In this document: piece by piece, positions 30,434 through 45,237 of the stretch
How the letters are laid out: every line of letters starts with the position of its first letter
Position numbering within the stretch: the stretch's first letter is position 1
Source of the DNA: Methylobacillus flagellatus
Lineage (GTDB): Bacteria > Pseudomonadota > Gammaproteobacteria > Burkholderiales > Methylophilaceae
Length of the DNA: 64,000 nucleotides
NCBI RefSeq assembly: GCF_005502435.1
Contig: NZ_SCOU01000003.1
Location: 62,001-126,000, forward strand
Direction of reading: 5' to 3'
Program-made: the position numbers and the translations under genes
Notes under the pieces: model-generated
Database searches by the model: none
The model's input: only the letters and a program-made list of their open reading frames with translations
What the model was told of the DNA's origin: nothing

Positions 30434-31000
30434 ATGAGTTCTTTGATCAACACCCAAGTGGCCCCTTTTAGCGCCAATGCCTTCCACAACGGCAAGTTCA
30501 TCACCGTGAGCGACGCAGACCTGCGTGGCAAGTGGTCTGTGGTGATCTTCATGCCAGCCGCGTTCACCTTCAACTGCCCTACCGAAGTTGAAGATGCGGC
30601 TGACAACTATGCCGAATTCCAGAAGGCTGGTGCCGAAGTGTACATCGTCACCACCGATACCCAGTTCTCGCACAAGGTCTGGCACGAAACCTCCCCAGCC
30701 GTGGGCAAGGCCAAGTTCCCGCTGGTCGGCGACCCGACCCATCAGCTGACCCGTGCTTTCCATGTGCACATTGAAGAAGAAGGCCTGGCACTGCGCGGCA
30801 CCTTCATCATCAATCCGGATGGCGTGATCAAGACCGCAGAAATCCACGACAACGCCATCGCGCGTGACGTGCACGAAACCCTGCGCAAGCTGAAGGCTGC
30901 GCAATATGTGGCCAACAACCCAGGTCAAGTGTGCCCAGCCAAGTGGAAGGAAGGCGAAAAGACGCTGACCCCATCCCTGGATCTGGTCGGCAAGATCTAA
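30434..31000 (+). CDS. ahpC: Alkyl hydroperoxide reductase subunit C (2-Cys peroxiredoxin)
   Basis: AhpC reduces H2O2, organic peroxides and peroxynitrite. The 188-residue protein has the peroxidatic site AAFTFNCPTEVED with Cys48 and the resolving site GQVCPAKWKEG near residue 168. The C-terminus KTLTPSLDLVGKI matches the AhpC subfamily. The usual PADFTFVCP reads PAAFTFNCP here, a mild departure. An ACGGAG ribosome site precedes the ATG at 30434. ahpF follows after 264 bp with a hairpin between, so levels of the two can differ. Confidence 0.96.
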   Translation: MSSLINTQVAPFSANAFHNGKFITVSDADLRGKWSVVIFMPAAFTFNCPTEVEDAADNYAEFQKAGAEVYIVTTDTQFSHKVWHETSPAVGKAKFPLVGDPTHQLTRAFHVHIEEEGLALRGTFIINPDGVIKTAEIHDNAIARDVHETLRKLKAAQYVANNPGQVCPAKWKEGEKTLTPSLDLVGKI

Positions 31001-31049
31001 GGCGGCTGATGCCTGTCTGATGAAAGACAGTAGCGATATGTAGTCACAA

Positions 31050-31074
31050 GACGCCCCTGCTGCGGCAGGGCGTC
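31050..31074 (+). terminator. Hairpin between ahpC and ahpF
   Basis: GACGCCCCTGC pairs with GCAGGGCGTC around TGCG, with one bulged C. It lies 50 bp after ahpC. No T tract follows, so it is more likely a partial terminator or transcript stabiliser than a full stop. Confidence 0.5.
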
Positions 31075-31151
31075 GAGTACAGGGCATAGGCGTATCAGCC
31101 CGTGTCCTGCCCTCGACGCGATCCCCCTGTGAATTTTTTGAACATCGGCCT

Positions 31152-31247
31152 GCACCCAGGGTGCAAGGCGCAGGGTGTTTGCACGCTGAATTTATGCTTT
31201 AACAGTTGCTTGAAACGCTTGCTTGAAACACTAGGGTGCTTGCACCC
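31152..31247. promoter_or_regulatory. Cluster of palindromes and direct repeats upstream of ahpF
   Basis: GCACCC-A-GGGTGC occurs at 31152-31164 and the reversed arrangement GGGTGC-TT-GCACCC at 31234-31247. Between them AGGGTGTTTGCACGC repeats the second motif with two changes, and a 13-bp tandem TTGCTTGAAACGC/TTGCTTGAAACAC occupies 31206-31231. The cluster ends 17 bp before the ahpF ATG. It may bind a regulator of ahpF separately from ahpC. Confidence 0.5.
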
Positions 31248-31264
31248 AGTCATTGGAGAACACC

Positions 31265-32803
31265 ATGCTCGACGATACCCTCAAGACCCAGTTGCAGACT
31301 TATTTAGGCATGCTGCGCCAGCCGATCCGCCTGATCGCTTCGTTGGATAACAGCGCCAATGCCACCGAAATGCGCGGCCTGCTGGAGCAGATCGCCAGCC
31401 TGTCCGACAAGGTCAGCTTTGATGCCAGCGGTGAGGATGCGCGCAAGCCATCGTTCGTGATCGCCCGCGAAGGCGAGACCGAGGGCGTGCGCTTTGCCGC
31501 CATCCCCATGGGACATGAATTCACTTCGCTGGTGCTGGCCTTGCTGTGGACCGGCGGCCATCCGCCCAAGGTGGAGGCCGAGGTGATCGAGCAGATCAAG
31601 GCGCTGGACGGCGATTTCAGCTTCGAGGTGTACATGAGCCTGTCCTGCCATAACTGCCCGGACGTGGTGCAGGCCACGGCCTTGATGGCCATCCTCAATC
31701 CCAAGGTGAAGACCACCGTCATCGACGGTGCGCTGTTCCAGGACGAGGTCAACGGCCGCAACATCATGGCCGTGCCGACCACTTACCTGAACGGCGAGCC
31801 ATTCGGTTCCGGTCGCATGACGGTGGAAGAGTTCCTCGCCAAGCTGGACACCGGTGCGGTGGCACGTGAAGCCGCCAAGCTGGACAAGAAAGCGCCATTC
31901 GACGTGCTCATCGTCGGTGGTGGCCCGGCGGGCGCATCGGCGGCGATCTATGCGGCCCGTAAAGGCATACGCACCGGCATCGTGGCCGAGCGTTTTGGTG
32001 GACAGGTGATGGACACGCTAGGCATCGAGAACTTCGTCTCGGTCAAGGAAACCGAAGGTCCCAAGCTGGTGGCCGCGCTGGAAGAACACGTGCGCAGTTA
32101 CGAGGTGGACATCATCAACCTGCAGCGTGCGGAATCGCTCAAGCGTGACGAACTGATCGAGATCAAGCTGGAAAGCGGCGCCACCCTCAAGAGCAAGACG
32201 GTGATCATCGCCACCGGTGCACGCTGGAAAGAACTCAACGTGCCGGGTGAGCGCGAGTACCGCGGCAAGGGCGTTGCCTACTGCCCGCACTGCGACGGCC
32301 CCTTGTTCAAGGGCAAGAGCGTGGCCGTGATCGGCGGTGGCAACTCCGGCGTGGAAGCTGCCATCGACCTGGCCGGTATCGTCGGCCACGTCACCCTGAT
32401 CGAGTACGACACCAAGTTGCGTGCGGATGCCGTGCTTCAGAACAAGCTGTTCAGCCTGCCCAACGTGACCGTGGTGATCAACGCGCAGACCACCGAGGTG
32501 ACCGGTGCAGACAAGGTCAACGGCCTGATCTACAAGGATCGCGCCACTGGCCTCGATCACAAGCTGGAGCTGGAAGGCGTGTTCGTGCAGATCGGCTTGC
32601 TGCCCAACACCGACTGGCTCAAGGGTACGGTGGAGCTCAGCAAGTTCGGCGAGATCAAGGTCGACTCACATGGCCAGACCTCGCTGCCCGGCGTGTTCGC
32701 CGCCGGTGACGTGACCACGGTGCCCTACAAGCAGATCATCATCGCCATGGGTGAAGGCTCCAAGGCTTCGCTGGGCGCGTTCGATTATCTGATCCGTCAG
32801 TAA
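31265..32803 (+). CDS. ahpF: Alkyl hydroperoxide reductase subunit F
   Basis: AhpF is the NADH-dependent flavoprotein disulfide reductase that regenerates AhpC. The 512-residue protein has an N-terminal double thioredoxin-fold domain with LSCHNCPDV (Cys128/Cys131). It also has the FAD motif [17 protein letters not shown] near residue 215, the redox-active CPHCDGPLF (Cys340/Cys343), the NAD motif [17 protein letters not shown] and the terminal [18 protein letters not shown] 31265 follows GGAG; a TTG four codons upstream is less likely. A bidirectional terminator follows at 32852-32880. Confidence 0.97.
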
Positions 32804-32923: not shown

Positions 32924-34258
32924 TCAGCCGCTTGCCTGAGCGGCGGTATCGAATACCATCTCCACGAGCAGCCCGCCTTCGGCGCGGTTGCTTAGCAGGA
33001 TGCGTCCGTGGTGGCGCAGCACGGCACGTTTGGCGATGGCGAGGCCCAGCCCAAAGCCACCCCCCTGACTCGTGCTGGCGCGGTAGAAGGGTTCAAACAC
33101 GGCCTCCAGCTCGCTTTCGGCCAGCCCCGGTCCGTGGTCGCGCACGGTGACATGCACCCCGCTTTCATCCTGATACAGGCGCACCAGTACCGTCTGCCCG
33201 GCCGGGTTGTATTTGAGTGCATTGCGGATCACGTTCTCGAACGCGCGGTGCAGCAGCTCGTAGCTGCCCGGCATGTAGACATCGCGCGTGGCTTGCAGCA
33301 CCACTTCGCTGCCTACTGCCTGCGCTTCGAAATTGACGTCATGCACGATGTCGGCCAGCAGTTCGTTGAGGCAGATGCGCTCGTTGGAATCTGCCAGCAA
33401 ACCGGCATCCAGTCTGGCCAGTGTGAGGATCTGGCCCAGCAGGTCGTCCAGGCGCTCGGTTTCGCGTTCGATGCGTTCCAGCGCCGTGGCGAGTTTTTCC
33501 GGTTGCTGCTGGGCGAGGCCAGCCGCCAGCCGCATGCGCGCTACTGGCGAGCGCAGCTCATGCGAGACATCATGCAGCAGCTGTTTCTGCGAATCGACCA
33601 GGGTCTGCAGACGCGTGGCCATGAAGTCGAAGTCACGCCCCAGGTCTGCCAGCTCGTCGTTCCGTCTGCCCATATTGTCGCTGACGCGGGCATTGAGGTC
33701 GCCGTCGGCCAGTTTGCGGCTGGCATGTTGCAGATGCCGGATAGGCCGTGTCATGTAGCCTGCGAACAGGGCACTGAAGATCAGGCTGGCGATGAAGGCG
33801 ATCAGCATCTGCATCTCGGGTGGTGGCAGCCTGTTCTTGAGCGGGCCGCCCGGACGTTTGTGATGCGCCGGGACGAACACGATGTATTCCGCACCGCTCA
33901 CGTCCTGCGTTTTGCGCAGGCTGGGTGAAGGCTGGCTGGTGGCCAGCGATACGCGTGCCTGCTGCAGCGCCTTGGGCGGCACCGGTCTATGATAGATATC
34001 CACCCCTTGCGCGTTGACCACCAGCACGTCGATCGGCCGCGCGCTGGGCCATTGCCGGAACTGTGCATCCAGCGCGGCTTTGCCGCCGAACTGGATCGCG
34101 TTGGCGGCCATGGTGACCAAAAATTCAGAGCGCCGGTCGGTGGAGAACTCCTCGTCCGAGTTGACGCGCTCGAAATAGACCGCGATGCCCACGGCCGCAC
34201 CCGTGATCACCAGCGTCAACCAGAAGCCGATGAACATCTTCCAGAACAGTCTGCCCAT
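32924..34258 (-). CDS. cpxA: CpxA-like sensor histidine kinase
   Basis: A 444-residue inner-membrane kinase. A first membrane helix lies near residues 7-28, followed by a periplasmic sensor of roughly 120 residues and a second helix near residues 149-170. HAMP follows (TRPIRHLQHASRKLADGDLNARV), then the dimerisation box LLHDVSHELRSPVARM with phospho-acceptor His233. The ATPase N, G1 and G2 boxes are NVIRNALKYNP, DHGPGLAESELEAVFEPFYR and GGFGLGLAIAKRAV. The layout is that of CpxA/EnvZ. It follows its response regulator by 2 bp. CpxR-type boxes upstream of the pair and a Spy/CpxP-like gene nearby support the Cpx assignment. Confidence 0.85.
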   Translation of the reverse strand: MGRLFWKMFIGFWLTLVITGAAVGIAVYFERVNSDEEFSTDRRSEFLVTMAANAIQFGGKAALDAQFRQWPSARPIDVLVVNAQGVDIYHRPVPPKALQQARVSLATSQPSPSLRKTQDVSGAEYIVFVPAHHKRPGGPLKNRLPPPEMQMLIAFIASLIFSALFAGYMTRPIRHLQHASRKLADGDLNARVSDNMGRRNDELADLGRDFDFMATRLQTLVDSQKQLLHDVSHELRSPVARMRLAAGLAQQQPEKLATALERIERETERLDDLLGQILTLARLDAGLLADSNERICLNELLADIVHDVNFEAQAVGSEVVLQATRDVYMPGSYELLHRAFENVIRNALKYNPAGQTVLVRLYQDESGVHVTVRDHGPGLAESELEAVFEPFYRASTSQGGGFGLGLAIAKRAVLRHHGRILLSNRAEGGLLVEMVFDTAAQASG

Positions 34259-34260
34259 GC

Positions 34261-34947
34261 TTATTCTCCCGGGATGAGCTGGTAACCCACCCCGCGCACG
34301 GTCTGGATGGGCGAACGGCCGTCGTCCAGCAAGCCCAGTTTGGCGCGCAGATTGCTGATGTGCACATCGATGCTGCGGTCATAGCGGCTCTCGGCGCGGC
34401 CCAGAGCCTGTTCGAACAGGTCTGCCTTGCTGACCACGCGGCCTGCATTGCGGATCAGCACTTCCAGCAGGCTGTATTCGCTGCTGGTGATGTCCAGTGC
34501 CTGACCGCGCCATTCGATCATGCGTTCTGCCGGGTGGATGATGATGTTGCCGACCAGCAGTGTCTCGCCTGCAGGCTGGTTGCGCTGACCGGTGCGGCGC
34601 TGGATGGCACGCAGACGGGCCACCAGTTCACGTGGGTTGAAGGGCTTGGCCAGATAGTCATCTGCGCCCAGTTCCAGACCGATGATGCGGTCGATCTCGT
34701 CACCTTTGGCGGTGAGCATGATGACCGGGATCTGGCTGCTGGCACGGATCAGACGCAGGGTGTCGAAGCCGTTGATGCGAGGCATCATCACGTCCAGGAT
34801 CACCAGGTCAGCCTGACCTGCCAGCGCCAGTTTGGCGCCCTCTTGCCCATCGTGCACGGTCTGTATGCCGATGTCTTCGGCAGACAAGTATTCGCGCACC
34901 ATCTGACATAGTTCGATGTCGTCATCGATCATCAACACATTTAGCAA
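34261..34947 (-). CDS. cpxR: CpxR-like response regulator
   Basis: A 228-residue OmpR/PhoB-family regulator. The receiver domain has the acidic pocket MIDDDIELC, phospho-acceptor Asp52 in LVILDVMMPRING and MLTAKGDEIDR. The C-terminal winged helix includes SSEYSLLEVLIRNAGRVVSKADL, RSIDVHISNLRAKLG and IQTVRGVGYQL. I use TTG 34947, because AAAGGAG lies six bases upstream and the product then starts MLNVLMIDDD; the frame is open to 35001 without support. Three GTAAA motifs in 10-bp phase lie about 90-110 bp upstream, suggesting autoregulation and control of the divergent periplasmic-protein/efflux genes. Confidence 0.88.
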   Translation of the reverse strand: MLNVLMIDDDIELCQMVREYLSAEDIGIQTVHDGQEGAKLALAGQADLVILDVMMPRINGFDTLRLIRASSQIPVIMLTAKGDEIDRIIGLELGADDYLAKPFNPRELVARLRAIQRRTGQRNQPAGETLLVGNIIIHPAERMIEWRGQALDITSSEYSLLEVLIRNAGRVVSKADLFEQALGRAESRYDRSIDVHISNLRAKLGLLDDGRSPIQTVRGVGYQLIPGE

Positions 34948-35033
34948 TTGCGACTCCTTTCGCACAGCAGCCCCACCAGAACGGTAACAGACGCAGTGCA
35001 TTCTGCCCCCGTCCGTGGTGCCTGTGCTGGCGC

Positions 35034-35058
35034 TTTACATACTTTTACCTAGTTTTAC
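35034..35058 (-). promoter_or_regulatory. Three phased GTAAA motifs (CpxR-box array)
   Basis: On the minus strand GTAAA occurs three times with exactly 5 bp between copies; on the plus strand TTTAC is at 35034-35038, 35044-35048 and 35054-35058. GTAAA-N5-GTAAA is the established CpxR consensus. The array lies midway between the divergent cpxR-like start (34947) and the His-rich protein start (35163). Confidence 0.85.
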
Positions 35059-35162
35059 ACCAGCGTAACCCAAGCATACAAACATTTAGTGGAATATGGC
35101 CCTCATAGCAACGGGCAACAAAATCCGGGCCGCCCACCCATCGCAATTGAGGAGTACGCATC

Positions 35163-35606
35163 ATGAAGATTAGCAAGCTTATCGCTTCAAGTCTGACCGC
35201 CGTCGGTCTGGTGCTCGCGATCTCTGGCCCGGCTTATGCCGACCGTGACGACCGCGGTCATCGTGGTGGTCATGGCTACGAGAATCATAGACAGCAGCAT
35301 CGTGGTGGTGACCGTGGTCGCGATGACCGTCGTCACGATTACCGTGGCAACGACCATCGCCGTCATGACTACAGTCGCCATGACTATGGCCGTCACGATC
35401 ACTACCGTGGCAACTACTATTCCACTGGCCATCATTATGGTGGCCGCGGCGCACCGCACTACACCTATCGCCATGATCTGCCACGCCGCCATGGTGGTTA
35501 CTGGCACCACGGCTGGCATGCCGGTCGTAACGGCAGCTGGTGGATCGTGGGCAACAACTGGCAGTTCTACGCACCTCCGGTTTCCATCATCTACCGGGCT
35601 TACTAA
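35163..35606 (+). CDS. Secreted histidine/arginine-rich protein
   Basis: A 147-residue protein with a clear signal peptide (MKISKLIASSLTAVGLVLAI to AYA near residue 26). The mature part has 18 histidines and many Arg, Asp and Tyr residues in a loose repeat (RRHDY, SRHDY, GRHDH). It ends in an aromatic-rich segment, SWWIVGNNWQFYAPP. The composition suggests metal or acidic-polymer binding in the periplasm or at the envelope; this is inference. I do not recognise a family. GAGGAG precedes the ATG. It is the first gene rightward of the CpxR boxes and 48 bp before the Spy/CpxP-like gene. Confidence 0.8.
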   Translation: MKISKLIASSLTAVGLVLAISGPAYADRDDRGHRGGHGYENHRQQHRGGDRGRDDRRHDYRGNDHRRHDYSRHDYGRHDHYRGNYYSTGHHYGGRGAPHYTYRHDLPRRHGGYWHHGWHAGRNGSWWIVGNNWQFYAPPVSIIYRAY

Positions 35607-35654
35607 GCCGACTTGATGCCGTTATTTCTTGAACCATTGAAAAGGAACATCACC

Positions 35655-36164
35655 ATGCAATCCAATCGTAAACATCTCATGCTGGCAGGCGTTTTCGCTG
35701 CCGTTCTATCCACCCTGAGCATCAGCAGCTTTGCCGGTTCAGGTGAAAAGTGTCACGGTCCGGCGCGTGGCGAACACGCTAGCCACCGAGGCCATGGCCC
35801 GGACGGCAAGGGGCCACAGGGCGCGTTCTGGCAGCACAAGATGGACAAGCTGAAGATGACGCCTGAGCAACAGGCGCAGGCCAAGCAGATCTTCGAAAAG
35901 CAGCGCGCCGCACAGGAAAAGAACCGTGAGGCCATGCGCGAGACACAGCAGGCTTTGTATGCAGCTTCGCGTACCAAGGATTTTGACCGTAGTCGTGTCG
36001 AACAGCTTGCTAACGACCAGGCCAAGCTGCGTGCCCAGATGACGGTTGCCCGTGCCGAGGCCATGCATCAGTTCTTTGCCGTGCTGACCGAAGAGCAGAA
36101 GCAGCAGATGCAACAGTGGCGTGAAAAGCGCAAACCGGCAGACAAGGCGCCTACGGCTAGCTGA
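35655..36164 (+). CDS. Spy/CpxP-family periplasmic protein
   Basis: A 169-residue protein with signal peptide (HLMLAGVFAAVLSTLSISSF, then A). The mature part is helical and contains LKMTPEQQAQAKQIFEKQRA near residue 71 and FFAVLTEEQKQQMQQWREKR near residue 138, the two LTxxQ-type motifs of the Spy/CpxP family. Members act as ATP-independent chaperones or as feedback inhibitors of CpxA. The start at 35655 has AAAGGA upstream; the frame is open 42 bases further. A terminator follows at 36214-36249. Confidence 0.88.
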   Translation: MQSNRKHLMLAGVFAAVLSTLSISSFAGSGEKCHGPARGEHASHRGHGPDGKGPQGAFWQHKMDKLKMTPEQQAQAKQIFEKQRAAQEKNREAMRETQQALYAASRTKDFDRSRVEQLANDQAKLRAQMTVARAEAMHQFFAVLTEEQKQQMQQWREKRKPADKAPTAS

Positions 36165-36213
36165 GTCCGTTCCGTGGCACTTAACTGAGGAAACTCGCTC
36201 CACCTCACCGGGT

Positions 36214-36249
36214 CTTCAGGTAATGTATCGCATTACCTGAAGCCTTTTT
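36214..36249 (+). terminator. Terminator after the Spy/CpxP-like gene
   Basis: CTTCAGGTAATG pairs perfectly with CATTACCTGAAG around TATCG and is followed by a T run. Being a 12-bp palindrome before mdtA, it could also serve as an operator, but the T run favours termination. Confidence 0.75.
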
Positions 36250-36289
36250 ACCCTACTGCTTTTTCTGTAACGCGACCCAGAGAATAATC

Positions 36290-37600
36290 ATGACGGCCAG
36301 TCCCGCCCCTCGTTCCTCTTCCTTTATCCGTAGTGTGCTGCCATGGTTGTTTGTGTTGGCGCTGCTGGCAGCGGCCGCCTGGTGGTTCTGGCCAGTGGCG
36401 TCTGATGATCAGGCCGCTGACCAGGCTGCACAGCAGGCCGCAGCGGACAAACCGGGGCCGCCTGGCAAGCCAGGCAAATTCGGTAAAAAGGGCGGCCGTG
36501 GTGGCGACCAGATGTCCACCGTGGGCGTGGCAGAAGTGAAGCAGCAGGACATCCCCCAATACCTGAACGCCATCGGCACCGTCACGCCGATCAGCAATGT
36601 CATCGTCAAGCCGCGCGTGGACGGCCAGCTGATCCGTGTGCTGTTCAAGGAAGGCCAATATGTGAACAAGGGCGATTTGCTGGCCGAGATCGATGCGCGT
36701 CCCTATCAGGTGCAATTGACGCAGGCGGAAGGCCAGATGGCGCGTGACCGCGCCTTGCTCAAGAACGCCGAACTGGATCTGCAGCGCTATCAGACTCTGC
36801 TGGCGCAGGACTCGCTGGCCAAGCAACAGCTGGATACGCAAGAGTCGCTGGTGCGCCAGTATCAGGGGGCCATCCAGACCGACCAGGGCGTGATCGACAA
36901 CGCCAAACTGCAGCTCAGTTTCACGCGCATCACCGCGCCAGTGAGCGGTCGCATCGGCTTGCGTCTGGTGGATGCCGGCAATATGGTGAGCAGTGCGGAT
37001 GCCACCGGCCTGCTCACTATCGCGCAGATCAAGCCCATCAATGTGGTGTTCTCGCTGCCGCAGGACGATCTGCCTGCGGTGCTGGGCCCACTGCGCAAAG
37101 GTGAGCGACTGCCGGTCAGTGCCTACGCACGTGACCAGAAGACCCTGCTGGCCGAAGGCGTGCTGAGCAGCCTGGATAACCAGGTCGATACCACCACCGG
37201 CACCGTCAAACTCAAAGGCGAATTCAGCAATGCAGACGAAGCCTTGTTCCCCAGCCAGTTCGTCAATGTGCGACTGCTCACCTCCACGCTGAAGCAAGTA
37301 CTGACCGTGCCCAACAACGCCGTGCTGCGTGGTGCACAGGGCGACTATGTGTACGTGGTCAAGGCTGACCGTACCGTGACCGTGAAGCCGGTGCAGGTGT
37401 TGACCATAGAAGGTGACATCACCGCAGTCCGTGCTGAATTGCAGCCTGGCCAGCAGGTGGTCACCGACGGCGCTGACAAACTGCGTGAAGGTGCAGAAGT
37501 GGCGCTGGCCAAGCCTGTGGTGTTATCCGACAAGACGGACAAGCCAAGAGGTAGGCGTGCTGATGCCTCGTCTGCCAAACCAGCCCGCGCTGCGCCATGA
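36290..37600 (+). CDS. mdtA: RND efflux periplasmic adaptor MdtA
   Basis: A 436-residue membrane fusion protein linking the RND pump to the outer-membrane channel. An N-terminal membrane helix ([20 protein letters not shown], residues 13-32) is followed by a lysine/glycine-rich linker. The barrel-sandwich hybrid starts at [22 protein letters not shown], with an alpha-helical hairpin ([20 protein letters not shown]) and a beta barrel with [16 protein letters not shown]-type sequence. The C-terminus is basic. Its last four bases overlap mdtB. Order and motifs fit MdtABC rather than AcrAB. Confidence 0.92.
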
Positions 37601-40600
37601 ACCCGTCACGCATCTTCATCCTGAGGCCGATCGCGACCTCACTGCTGATGCTGGCGATCCTCATCGTCGGCCTGCTTGCCTACCGCCTGCTGCCCTTGTC
37701 CGCCCTGCCCGAGGTGGATTACCCCACCATCCAGGTGGTGACGCTGTATCCGGGCGCCAGTCCGGAGGTCACGGCGGCCTCCATCACTGGCCCGCTGGAG
37801 CGGCAGTTCGGGCAGATGCCGGGGCTGGTGCAGATGTCGTCCAGCAGCTCGGGTGGTGCTTCGGTGATCACCCTGCAGTTCAGCTTGGAACGCACGCTGG
37901 ATTCAGCGCAGCAGGAAGTACAGGCGGCCATCAATGCCGCCACCAGCCTGCTGCCGCAGGACTTGCCCACGCCGCCCATCTACAGCAAGGTGAATCCGGC
38001 GGATACACCCATCATCACGCTGGCCATCACCTCGGACACCCTGCCGCTGCCCAGCTTGCAGGACCTGACCGATACACGTCTGGCGCAGAAGATCTCGCAA
38101 TTGTCCGGGGTGGGCCTGGTGTCGCTGAGTGGCGGTCAGCGCCCCGCGGTGCGCATTCAGGTGGACCCTGGCGCACTGGCCGCGCAAGGCCTCAATATCG
38201 ATGATGTGCGCACCGCCGTCACTAGCGGCAATGTGAATCAGGCCAAGGGCAGTTTCGACGGCCCGTCACGGGCGTCCACCATCGACGCCAATGACCAGCT
38301 GCGCAGCCCGGAAGATTACCGTAAGTTAGTGCTTGCTTACCGCAACGGTGCGGCAGTCAAGCTGGGCGATGTGGCCACACTGGTGGACGGCGCCGAGAAC
38401 AGCAAGCTGGCCGCCTGGGCCAATGGCAAACCAGCCATCCTGCTCAATGTGCAACGCCAGCCTGGCGCCAATGTGATCAAGGTGGTGGACAGCATCCGTG
38501 CCCTGCTGCCGGAGTTGCAGGCCAATCTGCCCGCCGACATGCGCGTGGAGGTGTTGAGTGACCGCACCGTCAACATACGCGCCGCCCTGCACGATGTGCA
38601 GTTCGAGCTGGTGCTGGCGGTGACGCTGGTGGTGCTGGTGATCTTCCTGTTCCTGCGCAACCTGCGCGCCACCATCATCCCGGCGGTGGCCGTGCCGCTG
38701 TCGCTGGTCGGCACCTTTGCCGTGATGTATGTGGCGGGTTTCAGCATCAACAACCTGACCCTGATGGCCTTGACCATCGCCGCCGGTTTTGTGGTGGATG
38801 ACGCCATCGTCATGATAGAGAACATCGCGCGCTATCTGGAGCGCGGCGAAAGCGCCATGCAGGCCGCGCTCAAAGGCGCCAGCCAGATCGGCTTCACCAT
38901 CATCTCGCTGACGCTGTCGCTGATCGCCGTGCTCATCCCCTTGCTGTTCATGGGCGATGTGGTCGGCCGCCTGTTCCGCGAGTTCGCCATCACGCTGGCG
39001 GTGGCCATCCTGATCTCGGCCGTGGTCTCACTTACGCTGACGCCTATGATGTGCGCGCGCTTGTTGCGGCATATCCCGGAGCAGGAGCGCAGCCGCTTCG
39101 ATGTGGTGGTCGGCAAGGGCTTCGACCGGCTGGCCGCCGCCTATGGACGTGCGCTGCAATGGGTGCTGGCGCGTCAGCCCATGGTGGTGGTGGTGGCAGT
39201 GGCGACGCTGGCACTCACCGTAGCGCTGTATGTGATGATTCCCAAGGGCTTCTTCCCGGTGCAGGACACCGGCTTGCTGCAAGGCATCACTGAAGCGCCG
39301 CAAACGGTTTCCTTCACCGCCATGGCCGAGCGTCAGCAACGCCTGGCCGAGGTGATGGGGGATGACCCGGACGTGGCCAGCGTCACCTCCTTTATCGGCG
39401 TGGACGGCATCAACGCCACACTGAATAGTGGTCGCTTGCTCATCAACCTGAAGCCGCATGCAGAGCGGGATGCCTCGGCGGATACCATCCTGGCGCGTCT
39501 GCAGCAGCGTGCCGCAGAAGTGACCGGCATCCATGTCTATCTGCAGCCGGTGCAGGACCTCACCATCGAGGACAAGGTCAGCCGCAACCAGTACCAATAC
39601 ACGCTGAGCAATCCGGACCAGCAGCAGCTCAACATCTGGGTACCGCGCTTGCAGCAGGCACTGGCCGGGTTGCCGCAGATCGCCGAAGTCAGCAGTGACT
39701 TGCAGCAGAAAGGCCTGCAGGCCTATGTGGATATCGACAGACAGGCGGCGGGACGCCTGGGCATCAGCGTGGCGGACATCAACAATGCGCTGTACAGCGC
39801 CTATGGCCAGCGCATGATCTCCACTATCTTCACGCAGTCCAACCAATACCGCGTGATCCTGGAAGTACGTCCTGACTTGCAGCAAAGTCCGCAGGCGCTG
39901 TCCAACCTTTACCTCACCACCGCAGAAGGTGCGCAAGTGCCGTTGACGGCGGTGGCCAGCGTGCGCGAGCAGCAAGCCGCGCTGCTGGTGAGCCGGCTGG
40001 GCCAGTTCCCGGTGAGCACGCTGTCGTTCAATCTGGCAGAAGGCTATTCACTGGGGGATGCGGTGCAGGCCATCGAGCAGGCACAGGCCGAACTTGGCCT
40101 GCCGGACAGCATGCAGACCAGTTTCCAGGGCGCTGCCCAGGCGTTCCGGGCTGCGTTGGGCAATCAGCTGTGGCTGATCCTGGCGGCCATCATCACTGTC
40201 TACATCCTGCTGGGCGTTTTGTACGAAAGCTTCATCCATCCGGTGACCATCCTGTCCACGCTGCCCAGTGCCGGGGTGGGGGCCTTGCTGGCCCTGATGC
40301 TGAGCGGCAGCGACCTCGGTGTGGTGGCCATCATCGGCATCATCCTGCTGATCGGTATCGTCAAGAAGAACGCCATCATGATGATCGACTTTGCGCTGGA
40401 CGCGCAGCGTAACGAAGGCAAATCCCCCGAGGAGGCCATCTACCAGGCCTGTCTGCTGCGCTTGCGCCCTATCCTGATGACCACCATGGCGGCCATGCTG
40501 GGTGCGCTACCGCTGGTGATCGCGGGCGGTGTGGGCTCGGAGCTGCGTCAGCCGCTGGGTATCGCGCTGGTGGGTGGTTTGTTGCTGAGTCAGGTGCTAA

Positions 40601-40683
40601 CACTGTTCACCACCCCGGTGATCTATTTGGCCTTTGACCGCACGGCACAGCGCCTGCGGCAGTGGACTGCCAGGGCGGCCTGA
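37597..40683 (+). CDS. mdtB: RND multidrug transporter MdtB
   Basis: A 1028-residue inner-membrane proton/drug antiporter of the HAE1 family with 12 membrane helices and two large periplasmic loops. Landmarks are [19 protein letters not shown] at the N-terminus, [20 protein letters not shown], the helix 4 proton-relay sequence [19 protein letters not shown] with paired Asp, and the repeat-two [18 protein letters not shown]. In E. coli MdtB and MdtC form a heterotrimer. The ATG overlaps mdtA and the stop is 1 bp before mdtC, so translation is coupled. Confidence 0.93.
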
Positions 40684-40684
40684 T

Positions 40685-43600
40685 ATGTCCATGATGGCAT
40701 TATTCGTGCGGCGGCCGGTGGCCACCACCTTGTTGACGCTGGGTATCGTGCTGGCCGGTTTTGTGGGTTTGCGTCAGTTGCCGGTAGCCCCTTTGCCGCA
40801 AGTGGAGTACCCGAACATCTCGGTGAGTGCCAGCTTGCCTGGCGCCAGCCCGGAGATCATGGCCAGCAGCGTGGCCACGCCGCTGGAGCGCGCGCTGGGG
40901 CGTATCGCCGGGGTCACCGAGATCACTTCCAGCAGCTCGCTGGGCTCGGTGCGTATCAATCTGGAATTCGATCTGGACCGTGACATCGACGGGGCCGCAC
41001 GCGATGTGCAGGCGGCCATCAACGCGGCACGCAGCACCCTGCCCACCGGCCTGCCGTCCAACCCCACCTACCGCAAGGTGAACCCGGCTTCTGCGCCCAT
41101 CATGATCCTGGCGCTGACCTCGGACACCATGCGGCGCGGCGAGCTGTATGACTACGCCTCCACCATCCTGGCGCAGAAGATCGCGCAGGTGCGCGGCATC
41201 GGTGAAGTCAGCGTGGGCGGCAGCTCCCTGCCGGCGGTGCGTGTGGATATAGACCCGCGTGCGCTCAACAAGTACGACCTGGACCTGGACGAGGTGCGTA
41301 ACTCCATCGCCAGCAACAACGTCAACCGTCCCAAGGGCGCACTGGCGGGCAGCGAGCAGCAATGGCAGATCGCCGCTAACGACCAGCTGGATAGTGCCGA
41401 GGATTTCCTGCCCATGATCATCCGCTACCGCAATGCGGCGGCGGTGCGTCTGGGAGACGTGGCCGAGGTCACGGATTCGGTGCAGGACCTGCGCAACGCG
41501 GGCCTGTCCGACGGCAAACCGGCCGTGCTGCTCATGGTGCGTGCACAGCCGGGTGGCAACATCATCGAGGCGGTGGACCGCGTCAAGGAGCTGATGCCTG
41601 TGCTGCGTGCCAGTGTGCCGGCCGCCATCGACATCGCCCTGGTTCAGGACCGCACCGTGGGCATACGCGCGTCCATCTATGTGGTGACGCATACCCTGTT
41701 CATCGCCATCGCGCTGGTGATCCTGGTGGTGTTCATCTTTTTGCGTGACTGGCGCGCCACCATGATCCCCGCCATCGCCGTGCCGGTGTCGCTGATCGGC
41801 ACCTTTGCCGCCATGTACCTGTGCGGTTACAGCCTGAACACCTTGTCGCTGATGGCGCTCACCATCGCCACCGGTTTTGTGGTGGACGATGCCATCGTGG
41901 TGGTGGAGAACGTCACGCGCCAGCTGGAGGCCGGCGCCAGCCGCATGCAGGCGGCCTTGCAGGGCGCGCGCGAGGTGAGTTTCACCGTGCTGGCGATGAG
42001 TCTGTCGCTGGTGGCGGTGTTCATCCCCATTCTGTTCATGGGCGGCATCGTCGGGCGTTTCTTCCGCGAATTCGCGGTGACGCTGTCGGTGGCCATTCTG
42101 GTGTCGCTGGTGGTGTCGCTGACGCTGGTGCCCATGCTGTGCGCGCGCTGGCTGCGCGACAAGCCGGTGCAGCCGGGACGGGTCAGTCTGGCGTTCGAGC
42201 GTGCGTTCACGCGTATGCAGAACGGCTATGCACGCAGCCTGCACTGGGCCTTGCGTTTTCGCGCCCTGATGCTGGTGCTGTTGCTGGCCACCATCAGCCT
42301 CAATGTGTATTTGTATGTGGTCATCCCCAAGGGCTTCTTCCCGCAACAGGATATCGGCCGTATCGCCGGTTCCATCCAAGCTGACCAGCAGATCTCGTTC
42401 CAGTCCATGCAGGACAAGCTCACCCATTTTATGGACATCGTGCGCCGTGACCCGGCGGTGGAAAGTGTGGTCGGCTTCACCGGCGGTGGTCGCCGCAACA
42501 GTGGTGTGATGTTCCTGGCCCTGAAGCCGGTGGCGCAGCGTGATGTGAGCACCGACGAAGTCATCAACCGCCTGCGTGAACAGCTCAAGGGTGAGCCGGG
42601 TGCCCAGTTGTTCCTGCAATCGGTGCAGGACATCCGTATCGGTGGGCGTCAGGGCAATGCGCAATACCAGTACACCCTGCAAAGTGACAACCTCAAGGAC
42701 CTGCGTGACTGGGCGCCGCAGATCCGCAAGGCGCTGAGTCAGCTGCCCGAGCTGCAGGATGTGAATACCGACGAGGAAGATCGCGGCCTGCAAACCTCGC
42801 TGGTGATAGACCGCGACACGGCCGCCCGGCTGGGCATCAGCATGGCGCAGATCAACAGCGCGCTCAATAACGCCTTCGGCCAGCGCCTGGTGTCCGTGAT
42901 CTATAACCCGCTCAACCAGTACCGCGTGGTGATGGAGCTGGCGCCCGAGTTCAGTGCCGATGCGCGCGCCCTGCAATATATCTATGTGCGTGCCGCCGAT
43001 GGTACCCAGGTGCCGCTGTCCTCCTTCAGTCGCTACGAACTGACGCGCACCGCACTGGAGGTGAACCATCAGGCCCAGTTCGCGGCCACCACGGTGACTT
43101 TCAACCTCACCGATGGCATCTCGCTGGGGGAAGCCACCGAGCTGATACGCGACACCTTTGTGAGTATCGGTGTGCCGCCTTCGGTACAGGGCGCATTCGC
43201 GGGCACGGCCAAGGTGTTCCAGCAGTCGCTCAAGAGTCAGCCCTGGCTGATCCTGGCGACCTTGCTGGCCGTGTATATCGTGCTGGGCATCCTGTATGAG
43301 AGCCTGTTGCACCCGCTGACCATCCTGTCCACCTTGCCCAGTGCCGGGGTCGGCGCGCTGCTGGCCTTGCTGGCCATGGGGCAGGATCTGAACCTGATCG
43401 GCATCATAGGCGTGATCCTGCTGATCGGCATCGTCAAGAAAAACGCCATCATGATGATCGACTTTGCACTGATGGCGGAACGTGAGCAGGGTTTGTCCGC
43501 GCAGGATGCCATTTTCAAGGCCTGCCAGATGCGCCTGCGCCCTATCCTGATGACCACCATGGCCGCCCTGCTGGGTGCAGTGCCGCTGGCGGTGGGGATA

Positions 43601-43786
43601 GGCGAAGGTGCCGAGCTGCGCCAGCCGCTGGGTATCGCCATCGTTGGCGGCCTGATGGTGAGTCAGTTGCTTACTTTGTATACCACGCCTGTGGTGTACC
43701 TCTATATGGACGCGGCACGGCGCCGCTGTTGGAAGCGCGGCAGCGCAAGCCAGCCGCGATTGGCGACAACACTGGGACAAGGATGA
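40685..43786 (+). CDS. mdtC: RND multidrug transporter MdtC
   Basis: A 1033-residue HAE1-family pump protein paralogous to MdtB. It begins [19 protein letters not shown] and keeps the same landmarks: [19 protein letters not shown] in helix 4 and [18 protein letters not shown] in helix 10. ATG 40685 is 1 base after the mdtB stop; an in-frame upstream start inside mdtB is rejected. The stop overlaps a possible start of the channel gene (ATGA). Two different RND subunits in one operon mark a hetero-oligomeric pump. Confidence 0.93.
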
Positions 43787-43794
43787 GACACACG

Positions 43795-45237
43795 ATGAAA
43801 ACACCGATCTGGCTATTGCTGTTCAGCCTGGCAGGCTGCACGGTAGGCCCGGATTACGTCAAACCCGAGGTGGAGACCCCGGCGGCGTTCAAGCAGGCCG
43901 ACGGTACGCAATGGAAGCAGGCCGAACCGCAGGATCATGTGCAGCGCGGCCCCTGGTGGCAGGTGTTCAATGATGAACTGTTGAACCAACTGGTGCCGCA
44001 AGTGGAAGTGTCCAACCAGACCTTGCGCGCCGCACTGGCGCGTTACCAACAGGCGGTCGCCGGTACACGTGCCGCACGTGCCGACCTGTTCCCCACCATA
44101 GGCAGTACGCTGTCACGTACCCGCAGCCAGTCTTCGCAGCTGGGTAACCGCACCTTCAACGGTAACCGGCTCAACACCAACAACACCTTGTCGGCCAACC
44201 TGAGCTGGGAGGCGGATATCTGGGGCCGCATCAGCCGCACCGTGGAAGCCAACCGTGCCGGTACCGACGCCAGTGCCAGCGATGTATCCGCCGCCCTGCT
44301 GAGTGCCCAGGCCGAGCTGGTGCAGAACTACTTTGCGCTGCGGCTGGCGGACAGTCAGCGTCTGGTGCTGGAAGACAGCATCGCCACCTATGAAAAATCC
44401 CTGCAGCAGACGCGTAACCGCTATGCAGCGGGCGTGGCCAGCAAGGCCGATGTGGTGCAGGCCGAAACGCAGCTCAATGCCACACGCGCCCAGGCGCTGG
44501 ATACCGGCATCCTGCGCGCCCAGCTAGAGAACGCCATCGCCGTGCTGACTGGTAAACCGCCGTCCAGCCTGAGCATTCCCGTGACCAGGCTCACCGAACA
44601 GTTACCGCTGGTGCCTGTGGGCCTGCCCTCGCAACTGCTGGAACGCCGCCCGGACGTGGCTGCGGCGGAGCGGCGCGTCGCGGCCGCCAACGCGCAGATC
44701 GGCGTGGCCAAGGCGGCCTTCTTCCCTACCGTCAATCTGTCGGTGAATGGTGGCTTCCAGAGCACCAGTTCGGCTAACCTGATCGATATCGCCAACCGCT
44801 TCTGGTCGGTCGGGCCTGCGCTGGCGTTAACCCTGTTCGATGCGGGCCGACGTCGTGCCTTGAGCGATCAGGCGATCGCCGCCTATGACGAGCAAGTGGC
44901 CAACTACCGCCAGACCACGCTGACTGCGTTCCAGGAGGTGGAAGACAACCTGGCGGCCTTGAATGTGTTGCAGCAGGAGATCGTATTGCAGACGCAAGCC
45001 CTGCAGGCAGCGCGGCAATCGCTGGAGATCAGCACTAACCAGTATCAGGCCGGGCTGATCAGCTACCTCGATGTGGTGACGGTGGCGAACATCGCCCTCA
45101 ACAACGAACGCACCCTGCTGACGCTGCGCGGGCAACAGTTCGCCGCGACGGTACAGCTGATGCGCGCACTGGGCGGCGGTTGGGAGCCGGGCACGGCCTT
45201 GCCGCACATGCAGGAAAGCGCGCGCCAAAAAGAATAA
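43795..45237 (+). CDS. OprM/NodT-family outer-membrane efflux lipoprotein
   Basis: A 480-residue TolC-like channel that completes the MdtABC pump. The signal peptide MKTPIWLLLFSLAGC gives a lipobox with Cys15, and the mature protein opens TVGPDYVKPEVETPAAF, typical of the family. Two repeats of long coiled coils follow (ANRAGTDASASDVSAALLSA; QVANYRQTTLTAFQEVEDNL). An ATG at 43783, overlapping the mdtC stop, is an alternative that adds four residues. A bidirectional terminator overlaps its stop codon. Confidence 0.92.
   Translation: MKTPIWLLLFSLAGCTVGPDYVKPEVETPAAFKQADGTQWKQAEPQDHVQRGPWWQVFNDELLNQLVPQVEVSNQTLRAALARYQQAVAGTRAARADLFPTIGSTLSRTRSQSSQLGNRTFNGNRLNTNNTLSANLSWEADIWGRISRTVEANRAGTDASASDVSAALLSAQAELVQNYFALRLADSQRLVLEDSIATYEKSLQQTRNRYAAGVASKADVVQAETQLNATRAQALDTGILRAQLENAIAVLTGKPPSSLSIPVTRLTEQLPLVPVGLPSQLLERRPDVAAAERRVAAANAQIGVAKAAFFPTVNLSVNGGFQSTSSANLIDIANRFWSVGPALALTLFDAGRRRALSDQAIAAYDEQVANYRQTTLTAFQEVEDNLAALNVLQQEIVLQTQALQAARQSLEISTNQYQAGLISYLDVVTVANIALNNERTLLTLRGQQFAATVQLMRALGGGWEPGTALPHMQESARQKE

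What the first reader, a model, noticed from the sequence alone, without database searches (positions are those of the whole stretch)
35034..35058. Triple CpxR box between a CpxRA-like pair and a periplasmic-protein/efflux block
GTAAA occurs three times with exactly 5 bp between copies, one more than the standard CpxR box. It lies between divergent cpxRA-like genes and a run containing a His-rich secreted protein, a Spy/CpxP-like chaperone and mdtABC plus its channel. In E. coli mdtABC and spy are mainly in the BaeSR regulon, so a single local Cpx-type system for all of them would be a compact rewiring.
Basis: partly seen in the sequence, partly recalled or inferred. Interest (0 to 1): 0.6.

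Follow-up and report, generated by a model that had tools for sequence, protein, structure and literature searches.

The report
Triple CpxR-type box, conserved stress switch
A methylotroph-like bacterium carries a cell-envelope stress switch of the well-known Cpx type, with three instead of two evenly spaced binding marks for its regulator; the marks are strongly conserved in relatives, but the drug-pump genes behind it are separated by a transcription stop signal, so the claimed single unit is only partly right.

Summary
GTAAA occurs three times with 10-bp phasing at 35034-35058 (minus strand); no such triple appeared in 100 shuffles. In 12 of 12 family loci with the closest regulator (RR >=69% identity) the triple keeps its phase, GTAAN-N5-GTAAA-N5-GTAAN, while flanks diverge. 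The neighbouring pair is CpxRA-like: the RR sits in the CpxR clade with a CpxR-type recognition helix, and the kinase core is closest to CpxA, though its sensor domain is not recognisably CpxA's. A Spy/CpxP-like gene is divergent, as in E. coli. No BaeR passes its cut-off in this genome.

The 'one system for all' reading needs correction. A strong, conserved intrinsic terminator (36214-36242) separates his-spy from mdtABC, with little room for a promoter after it. Read-through, or an overlooked promoter, must supply the pump. CpxR control of an MdtABC-type pump (MuxABC) is already known in Pseudomonas, with overlapping sites listed at muxA, so the rewiring is not new in kind.

New here: mdtABC placed behind cpxP in this lineage, an AcrB-type pump in the same place in sister genera, and the terminator gate. 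Binding, transcription and read-through are untested.

The parts
35034..35058 (-). triple CpxR-type box, three GTAAA half-sites at 10-bp spacing
   Evidence: conserved in phase in 12/12 family loci with RR >=69% identity; half-site columns 92% vs flanks 47% mean pairwise identity over 11 loci.
35044..35058 (-). half-site pair nearest his-spy; on the plus strand the half-site at 35054-35058 overlaps the candidate -35 of the his-spy promoter
   Evidence: Inference from spacing; no insertion or deletion between array and candidate -10 in 11 loci.
35054..35082 (+). candidate promoter for his-spy: TTTACA, 17 bp, TACAAA
   Evidence: Sequence reading; -10 region only partly conserved. Not detected by the consensus scan.
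35000..35005 (-). candidate -10 (CAGAAT) of cpxRA, 28 bp from the array; conserved GATTYTGCC-like element in relatives
   Evidence: Sequence reading and alignment. Inference.
34261..34947 (-). CpxR-like response regulator (TTG start)
   Evidence: 46% to E. coli CpxR, 40% BaeR, 36% CreB; top NCBIfam model CpxR but below its cut-off; inside CpxR clade in tree; recognition helix DRSIDVHISNLRAKL.
32924..34258 (-). CpxA-like sensor histidine kinase
   Evidence: Best solved relatives are CpxA structures, E 6e-40, kinase part; below NCBIfam CpxA cut-offs; two TM segments.
35163..35606 (+). His-rich secreted protein, 147 aa
   Evidence: No Pfam or NCBIfam hit; in family only G000, G001, G023 and weakly G018.
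35655..36164 (+). Spy/CpxP-like periplasmic protein
   Evidence: Pfam LTXXQ 52 bits, cut-off 24.3; Spy and CpxP are the only solved relatives.
36214..36242 (+). intrinsic terminator between spy and mdtA
   Evidence: MFE -21.7 kcal/mol, z -6.7; counterparts in G001 (identical) and G023 (diverged).
36290..37600 (+). MdtA-type adaptor
   Evidence: NCBIfam MdtA/MuxA 423.6 bits, cut-off 391.
37597..40683 (+). MdtB-type permease
   Evidence: NCBIfam MdtB/MuxB 1651 bits, cut-off 1584.
40685..43786 (+). MdtC-type permease
   Evidence: NCBIfam MdtC 1577.6 bits, below cut-off 1774; 61% to E. coli MdtC.
43786..45237 (+). NodT-type outer-membrane channel
   Evidence: TIGR01845 454.5 bits, cut-off 210.

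Best explanation
This is a Cpx-type envelope-stress locus. The phosphorylated CpxR-like regulator binds the three half-sites as head-to-tail dimers that share the middle half-site. It activates both divergent promoters: cpxRA (autoregulation) on the left and his-spy on the right, where the outermost half-site overlaps the -35. Most his-spy transcripts end at the terminator 36214-36242. A fraction reads through into mdtABC and its channel, giving the pump a lower, Cpx-linked output. Shown here by computation: the array, its conservation, the gene identities, the terminator. Inferred: binding, activation, dimer sharing, read-through.
For: Array phase conserved in 12/12 close family loci while flanks diverge; 13 of the 15 half-site columns invariant, including all five of the middle half-site. 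The spacing from the array to the candidate -10 is constant. RR in CpxR clade with the CpxR-type HISNLR recognition helix. Same divergent cpxRA/cpxP layout with two GTAAA copies in E. coli MG1655. Conserved terminator; only 41 nt (G000) or about 16 nt (G023) between its T-run and the mdtA start, and no GTAAA pair there. No BaeR over its cut-off; two of the other RRs found are PhoB and OmpR.
Against: No binding, transcript or promoter data. A promoter overlapping the hairpin or inside spy cannot be excluded; the scan used covers only a sigma-70 consensus. In sister genome G010 the unrelated pump behind spy has its own TATAAT after the terminator, so adjacency need not mean read-through. RR and HK miss the NCBIfam equivalog cut-offs.
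Confidence: 0.6

Rival explanations
1. mdtABC has its own promoter in or just before the terminator and is not controlled by the array; its place behind spy is incidental.
For: Strong terminator in between; most standalone mdtABC operons of the family lack an exact CpxR pair (28 of 30); G010 shows a promoter-like TATAAT behind the spy terminator.
Against: Order his-spy-terminator-mdtABC kept in two genera; no promoter-like site on the plus strand there; little room after the terminator.
Confidence: 0.27
2. One reading: one uninterrupted operon 35163-45237 driven by the array.
For: All genes on one strand, short gaps.
Against: A 13-bp perfect hairpin with T-run between spy and mdtA, conserved in G023 with changed sequence.
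Confidence: 0.07
3. The array belongs to another OmpR-family regulator and the adjacent pair is not functionally Cpx-like.
For: RR and HK below equivalog cut-offs; CreB scores close to CpxR in NCBIfam; predicted sensor domain resembles the AbfS sensor 2va0, not CpxA (weak, TM about 0.4-0.5).
Against: Tree, recognition helix, gene order, and a GTAAA pair within about 60-110 bp of most cpxR-like genes across the order.
Confidence: 0.05
4. Chance run of AT-rich pentamers.
For: None found.
Against: 0 of 100 shuffles; invariant columns in relatives.
Confidence: 0.01

Closest known systems
E. coli K-12 cpxRA / cpxP (with CpxQ sRNA)
   Same: Divergent cpxRA and cpxP, GTAAA repeats at 10-bp phase between them in the same orientation; in E. 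coli the sRNA CpxQ comes from the cpxP 3' end (PMC4817254).
   Different: Two half-sites instead of three in the intergenic region read here; fieF follows, not an efflux pump; no CpxQ family hit here.
Pseudomonas CpxR control of muxABC-opmB and cpxP
   Same: CpxR directly activates an MdtABC-type pump (PMC5063474); PAO1 muxA is listed with sites at -78 and -89 (PMC12802237), which I read as three half-sites sharing the middle one, at 11-bp spacing.
   Different: The pump is unlinked to the cpx locus and has its own box; cpxR and cpxS flank cpxP.
E. coli BaeSR regulon (mdtABC, acrD, spy)
   Same: Same output types: MdtABC pump and Spy chaperone.
   Different: No BaeR over its cut-off here; the local regulator is CpxR-like.

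Membership tests
CpxR box | GTAAA-N4-8-GTAAA direct repeat (PMC5063474) | tested here: met
   two overlapping exact pairs.
CpxR | NCBIfam NF008199 equivalog cut-off 341 bits | tested here: not met
   217.4 bits, though the best-scoring model.
CpxR | groups with E. coli CpxR apart from BaeR, CreB, PhoB, OmpR | tested here: met
   Tree; BaeR, CreB and ArcA are long branches, so limited sampling.
CpxR | CpxR-type recognition helix | tested here: met
   HISNLR as in E. coli CpxR; BaeR has HIKNLR, CreB HIKTLR.
CpxR | binds the box when phosphorylated | not testable with these tools
   Needs footprinting.
CpxA | NCBIfam NF007007 cut-off 486 bits / NF045900 cut-off 800 | tested here: not met
   210 and 277 bits.
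CpxA | CpxA periplasmic domain | tested here: not met
   No Pfam sensor-domain hit; predicted domain (pLDDT 82.7) best matches AbfS sensor 2va0, weakly.
CpxP/Spy | LTXXQ family PF07813 | tested here: met
   52 bits, cut-off 24.3; NCBIfam Spy and CpxP equivalog cut-offs not met.
MdtABC pump | NCBIfam cut-offs for MdtA, MdtB, MdtC | tested here: inconclusive
   MdtA and MdtB met, MdtC not (1577.6 vs 1774).
CpxQ sRNA | Rfam match at spy 3' end | tested here: not met
   No relevant match at E<=1; terminator itself present.
BaeSR control | BaeR ortholog present | tested here: not met
   None over cut-off in G000; best candidate is PhoB.

The most novel reading that the evidence does not exclude
The cpxP-terminator unit acts as a docking place where different RND pumps (MdtABC-type in G000/G001/G023, AcrB-type in G010/G210/G011/G030) are put under Cpx control by regulated terminator read-through, with a three-half-site box whose shared middle site divides CpxR between the two divergent promoters.
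Probability: 0.15. Interest if true: 0.6.

Novelty: new variant of a known kind. Interest (0 to 1): 0.33.

Why it matters
It gives a clear betaproteobacterial case of a conserved three-half-site CpxR-type box and shows that the place behind cpxP holds an MdtABC-type pump in one lineage and an AcrB-type pump in others. That makes two questions directly testable: what a third half-site does at a divergent promoter, and whether a terminator sets the ratio of chaperone to pump.

Tried and rejected
A regulon search with the exact pair gave only the array and one site upstream of a TonB receptor, no more than the reversed-pattern control. The BaeSR-like hit in G000 (L194) turned out to be PhoBR, and L195 has an OmpR. 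Standalone mdtABC operons in the family mostly lack an exact CpxR pair (28 of 30, two of them with short upstream regions), so ancestral control in trans is not supported. The Rfam search for CpxQ found nothing relevant. Comparison of the sensor domain with solved structures gave only weak matches. One paper search found nothing and one was malformed.

Full report
Observation. The 25-bp sequence at 35034-35058 contains GTAAA three times with five bases between copies, on the minus strand. The triple occurs once in the window and in none of 100 shuffles. Exact pairs occur three times in the 2.38-Mb genome, two of them in this array. RR relatives place the genome in or near Methylophilaceae.

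Neighbours. Left, on the minus strand, are a response regulator and a histidine kinase. The RR is 46% identical to E. coli CpxR, against 40% BaeR and 36% CreB, close to the 47% of the functional P. aeruginosa CpxR (PMC5063474). It falls in a clade with E. coli CpxR, apart from BaeR, CreB, ArcA, PhoB and OmpR, and its recognition helix reads HISNLR as in CpxR. The kinase core is closest to CpxA among solved structures. Both score below the NCBIfam equivalog cut-offs, so I call them CpxR-like and CpxA-like. The kinase's periplasmic domain has no Pfam hit, and its predicted structure resembles the AbfS sensor more than CpxA, weakly.

Right, on the plus strand: a His-rich secreted protein found in only a few family genomes, a Spy/CpxP-like protein, and MdtA, MdtB, MdtC plus an outer-membrane channel.

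Conservation. Twelve family loci with RR identity of at least 69% all keep the triple in phase. Over 11 of them (G001 left out as near-identical) half-site columns average 92% pairwise identity, spacers 69%, flanks 47%; 13 of 15 half-site columns are invariant. These genomes are related, so the hypergeometric P of 1e-10 treats columns as independent and should be read as descriptive. The 55-58% RR group usually has TTAAG-N5-GTAAA-N5-GTAAA. Across the order a GTAAA pair about 60-110 bp upstream of the cpxR-like gene is the rule, and close triples (at most one mismatch) were seen at that place in L197, L199 and L217. E. coli has the same divergent layout with two copies.

Promoter geometry (inference). 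Read on the plus strand, the outermost half-site overlaps a TTTACA that is 17 bp from TACAAA; array-to-candidate -10 spacing does not vary in 11 loci. On the minus strand a conserved GATTYTGCC-like element 28-29 bp away could hold the cpxRA -10. The middle half-site is the only one with all five positions invariant, which suggests that it is shared.

The terminator. Between spy and mdtA lies CTTCAGGTAATGTATCGCATTACCTGAAG followed by CCTTTTT (36214-36242), MFE -21.7 kcal/mol, z -6.7. G001 has it unchanged; G023 has a diverged hairpin at the same place, followed by a T-run about 16 nt before mdtA. An automated scan found a terminator-like hairpin behind the spy-like gene in most family loci, though not in all. 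So the his-spy transcript probably ends there, and the pump needs read-through or its own promoter.

The pump. MdtB homologs occur in 40 of 187 family genomes but adjoin cpxRA only in G000 and G001, and by gene order across contig breaks in G023. In G010, G210, G011 and G030 an AcrB-type pump, 68-81% identical among themselves, lies at that place instead. G010 has a TATAAT just after the terminator, so its pump may have its own promoter. Of 30 standalone mdtA upstream regions examined, 28 lack an exact CpxR pair; G163 and G007 have one.

Comparison with the literature. Divergent cpxP/cpxRA is described as the majority organisation (PMC12802237). CpxR directly activates muxABC-opmB, described as the mdtABC ortholog, in Pseudomonas (PMC5063474). 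The PAO1 muxA sites at -78 and -89 in PMC12802237 Table 1 read as three half-sites sharing the middle one; that reading is mine. In Erwinia CpxR did not bind or induce mdtABC (PMC4107485). The rewiring claim is therefore not new in kind; the local layout and the terminator gate are a variant.

Verdict. A real, conserved CpxR-type triple box in a Cpx-type locus; first-reader interpretation partly supported. All function is inferred from sequence.

Noticed in passing
L146, L148, L151, L152 behind the spy-like position: Sister genomes G010, G210, G011 and G030 carry an AcrB-type pump where the window has mdtABC. Whether this is ancestral or independent was not tested.
   Followed up: partly
G000:C1:389480-389494 (L001 3481-3495): The only other exact GTAAA-N5-GTAAA pair in the genome lies just upstream of a TonB-dependent receptor gene; about the number expected by chance.
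   Followed up: partly
window 35163-35606: His-rich secreted protein with no family hit; in the family only in G000, G001, G023 and weakly G018.
   Followed up: partly
window 33785-34189 (kinase sensor domain): Predicted fold best matches the AbfS sensor (2va0) of Cellvibrio, not CpxA; weak.
   Followed up: partly
L190 and L191 upstream of mdtA (G163, G007): Two standalone mdtABC operons have an exact CpxR pair upstream, G007 a near triple; G163 had no RR match at the threshold used.
   Followed up: no
window 30434-32803: AhpC-like and AhpF-like genes end next to the kinase gene, convergent with cpxA (named from sequence reading).
   Followed up: no
window 36165-36250: Spy 3' end with terminator could be a source of a CpxQ-like small RNA; no Rfam match.
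   Followed up: partly
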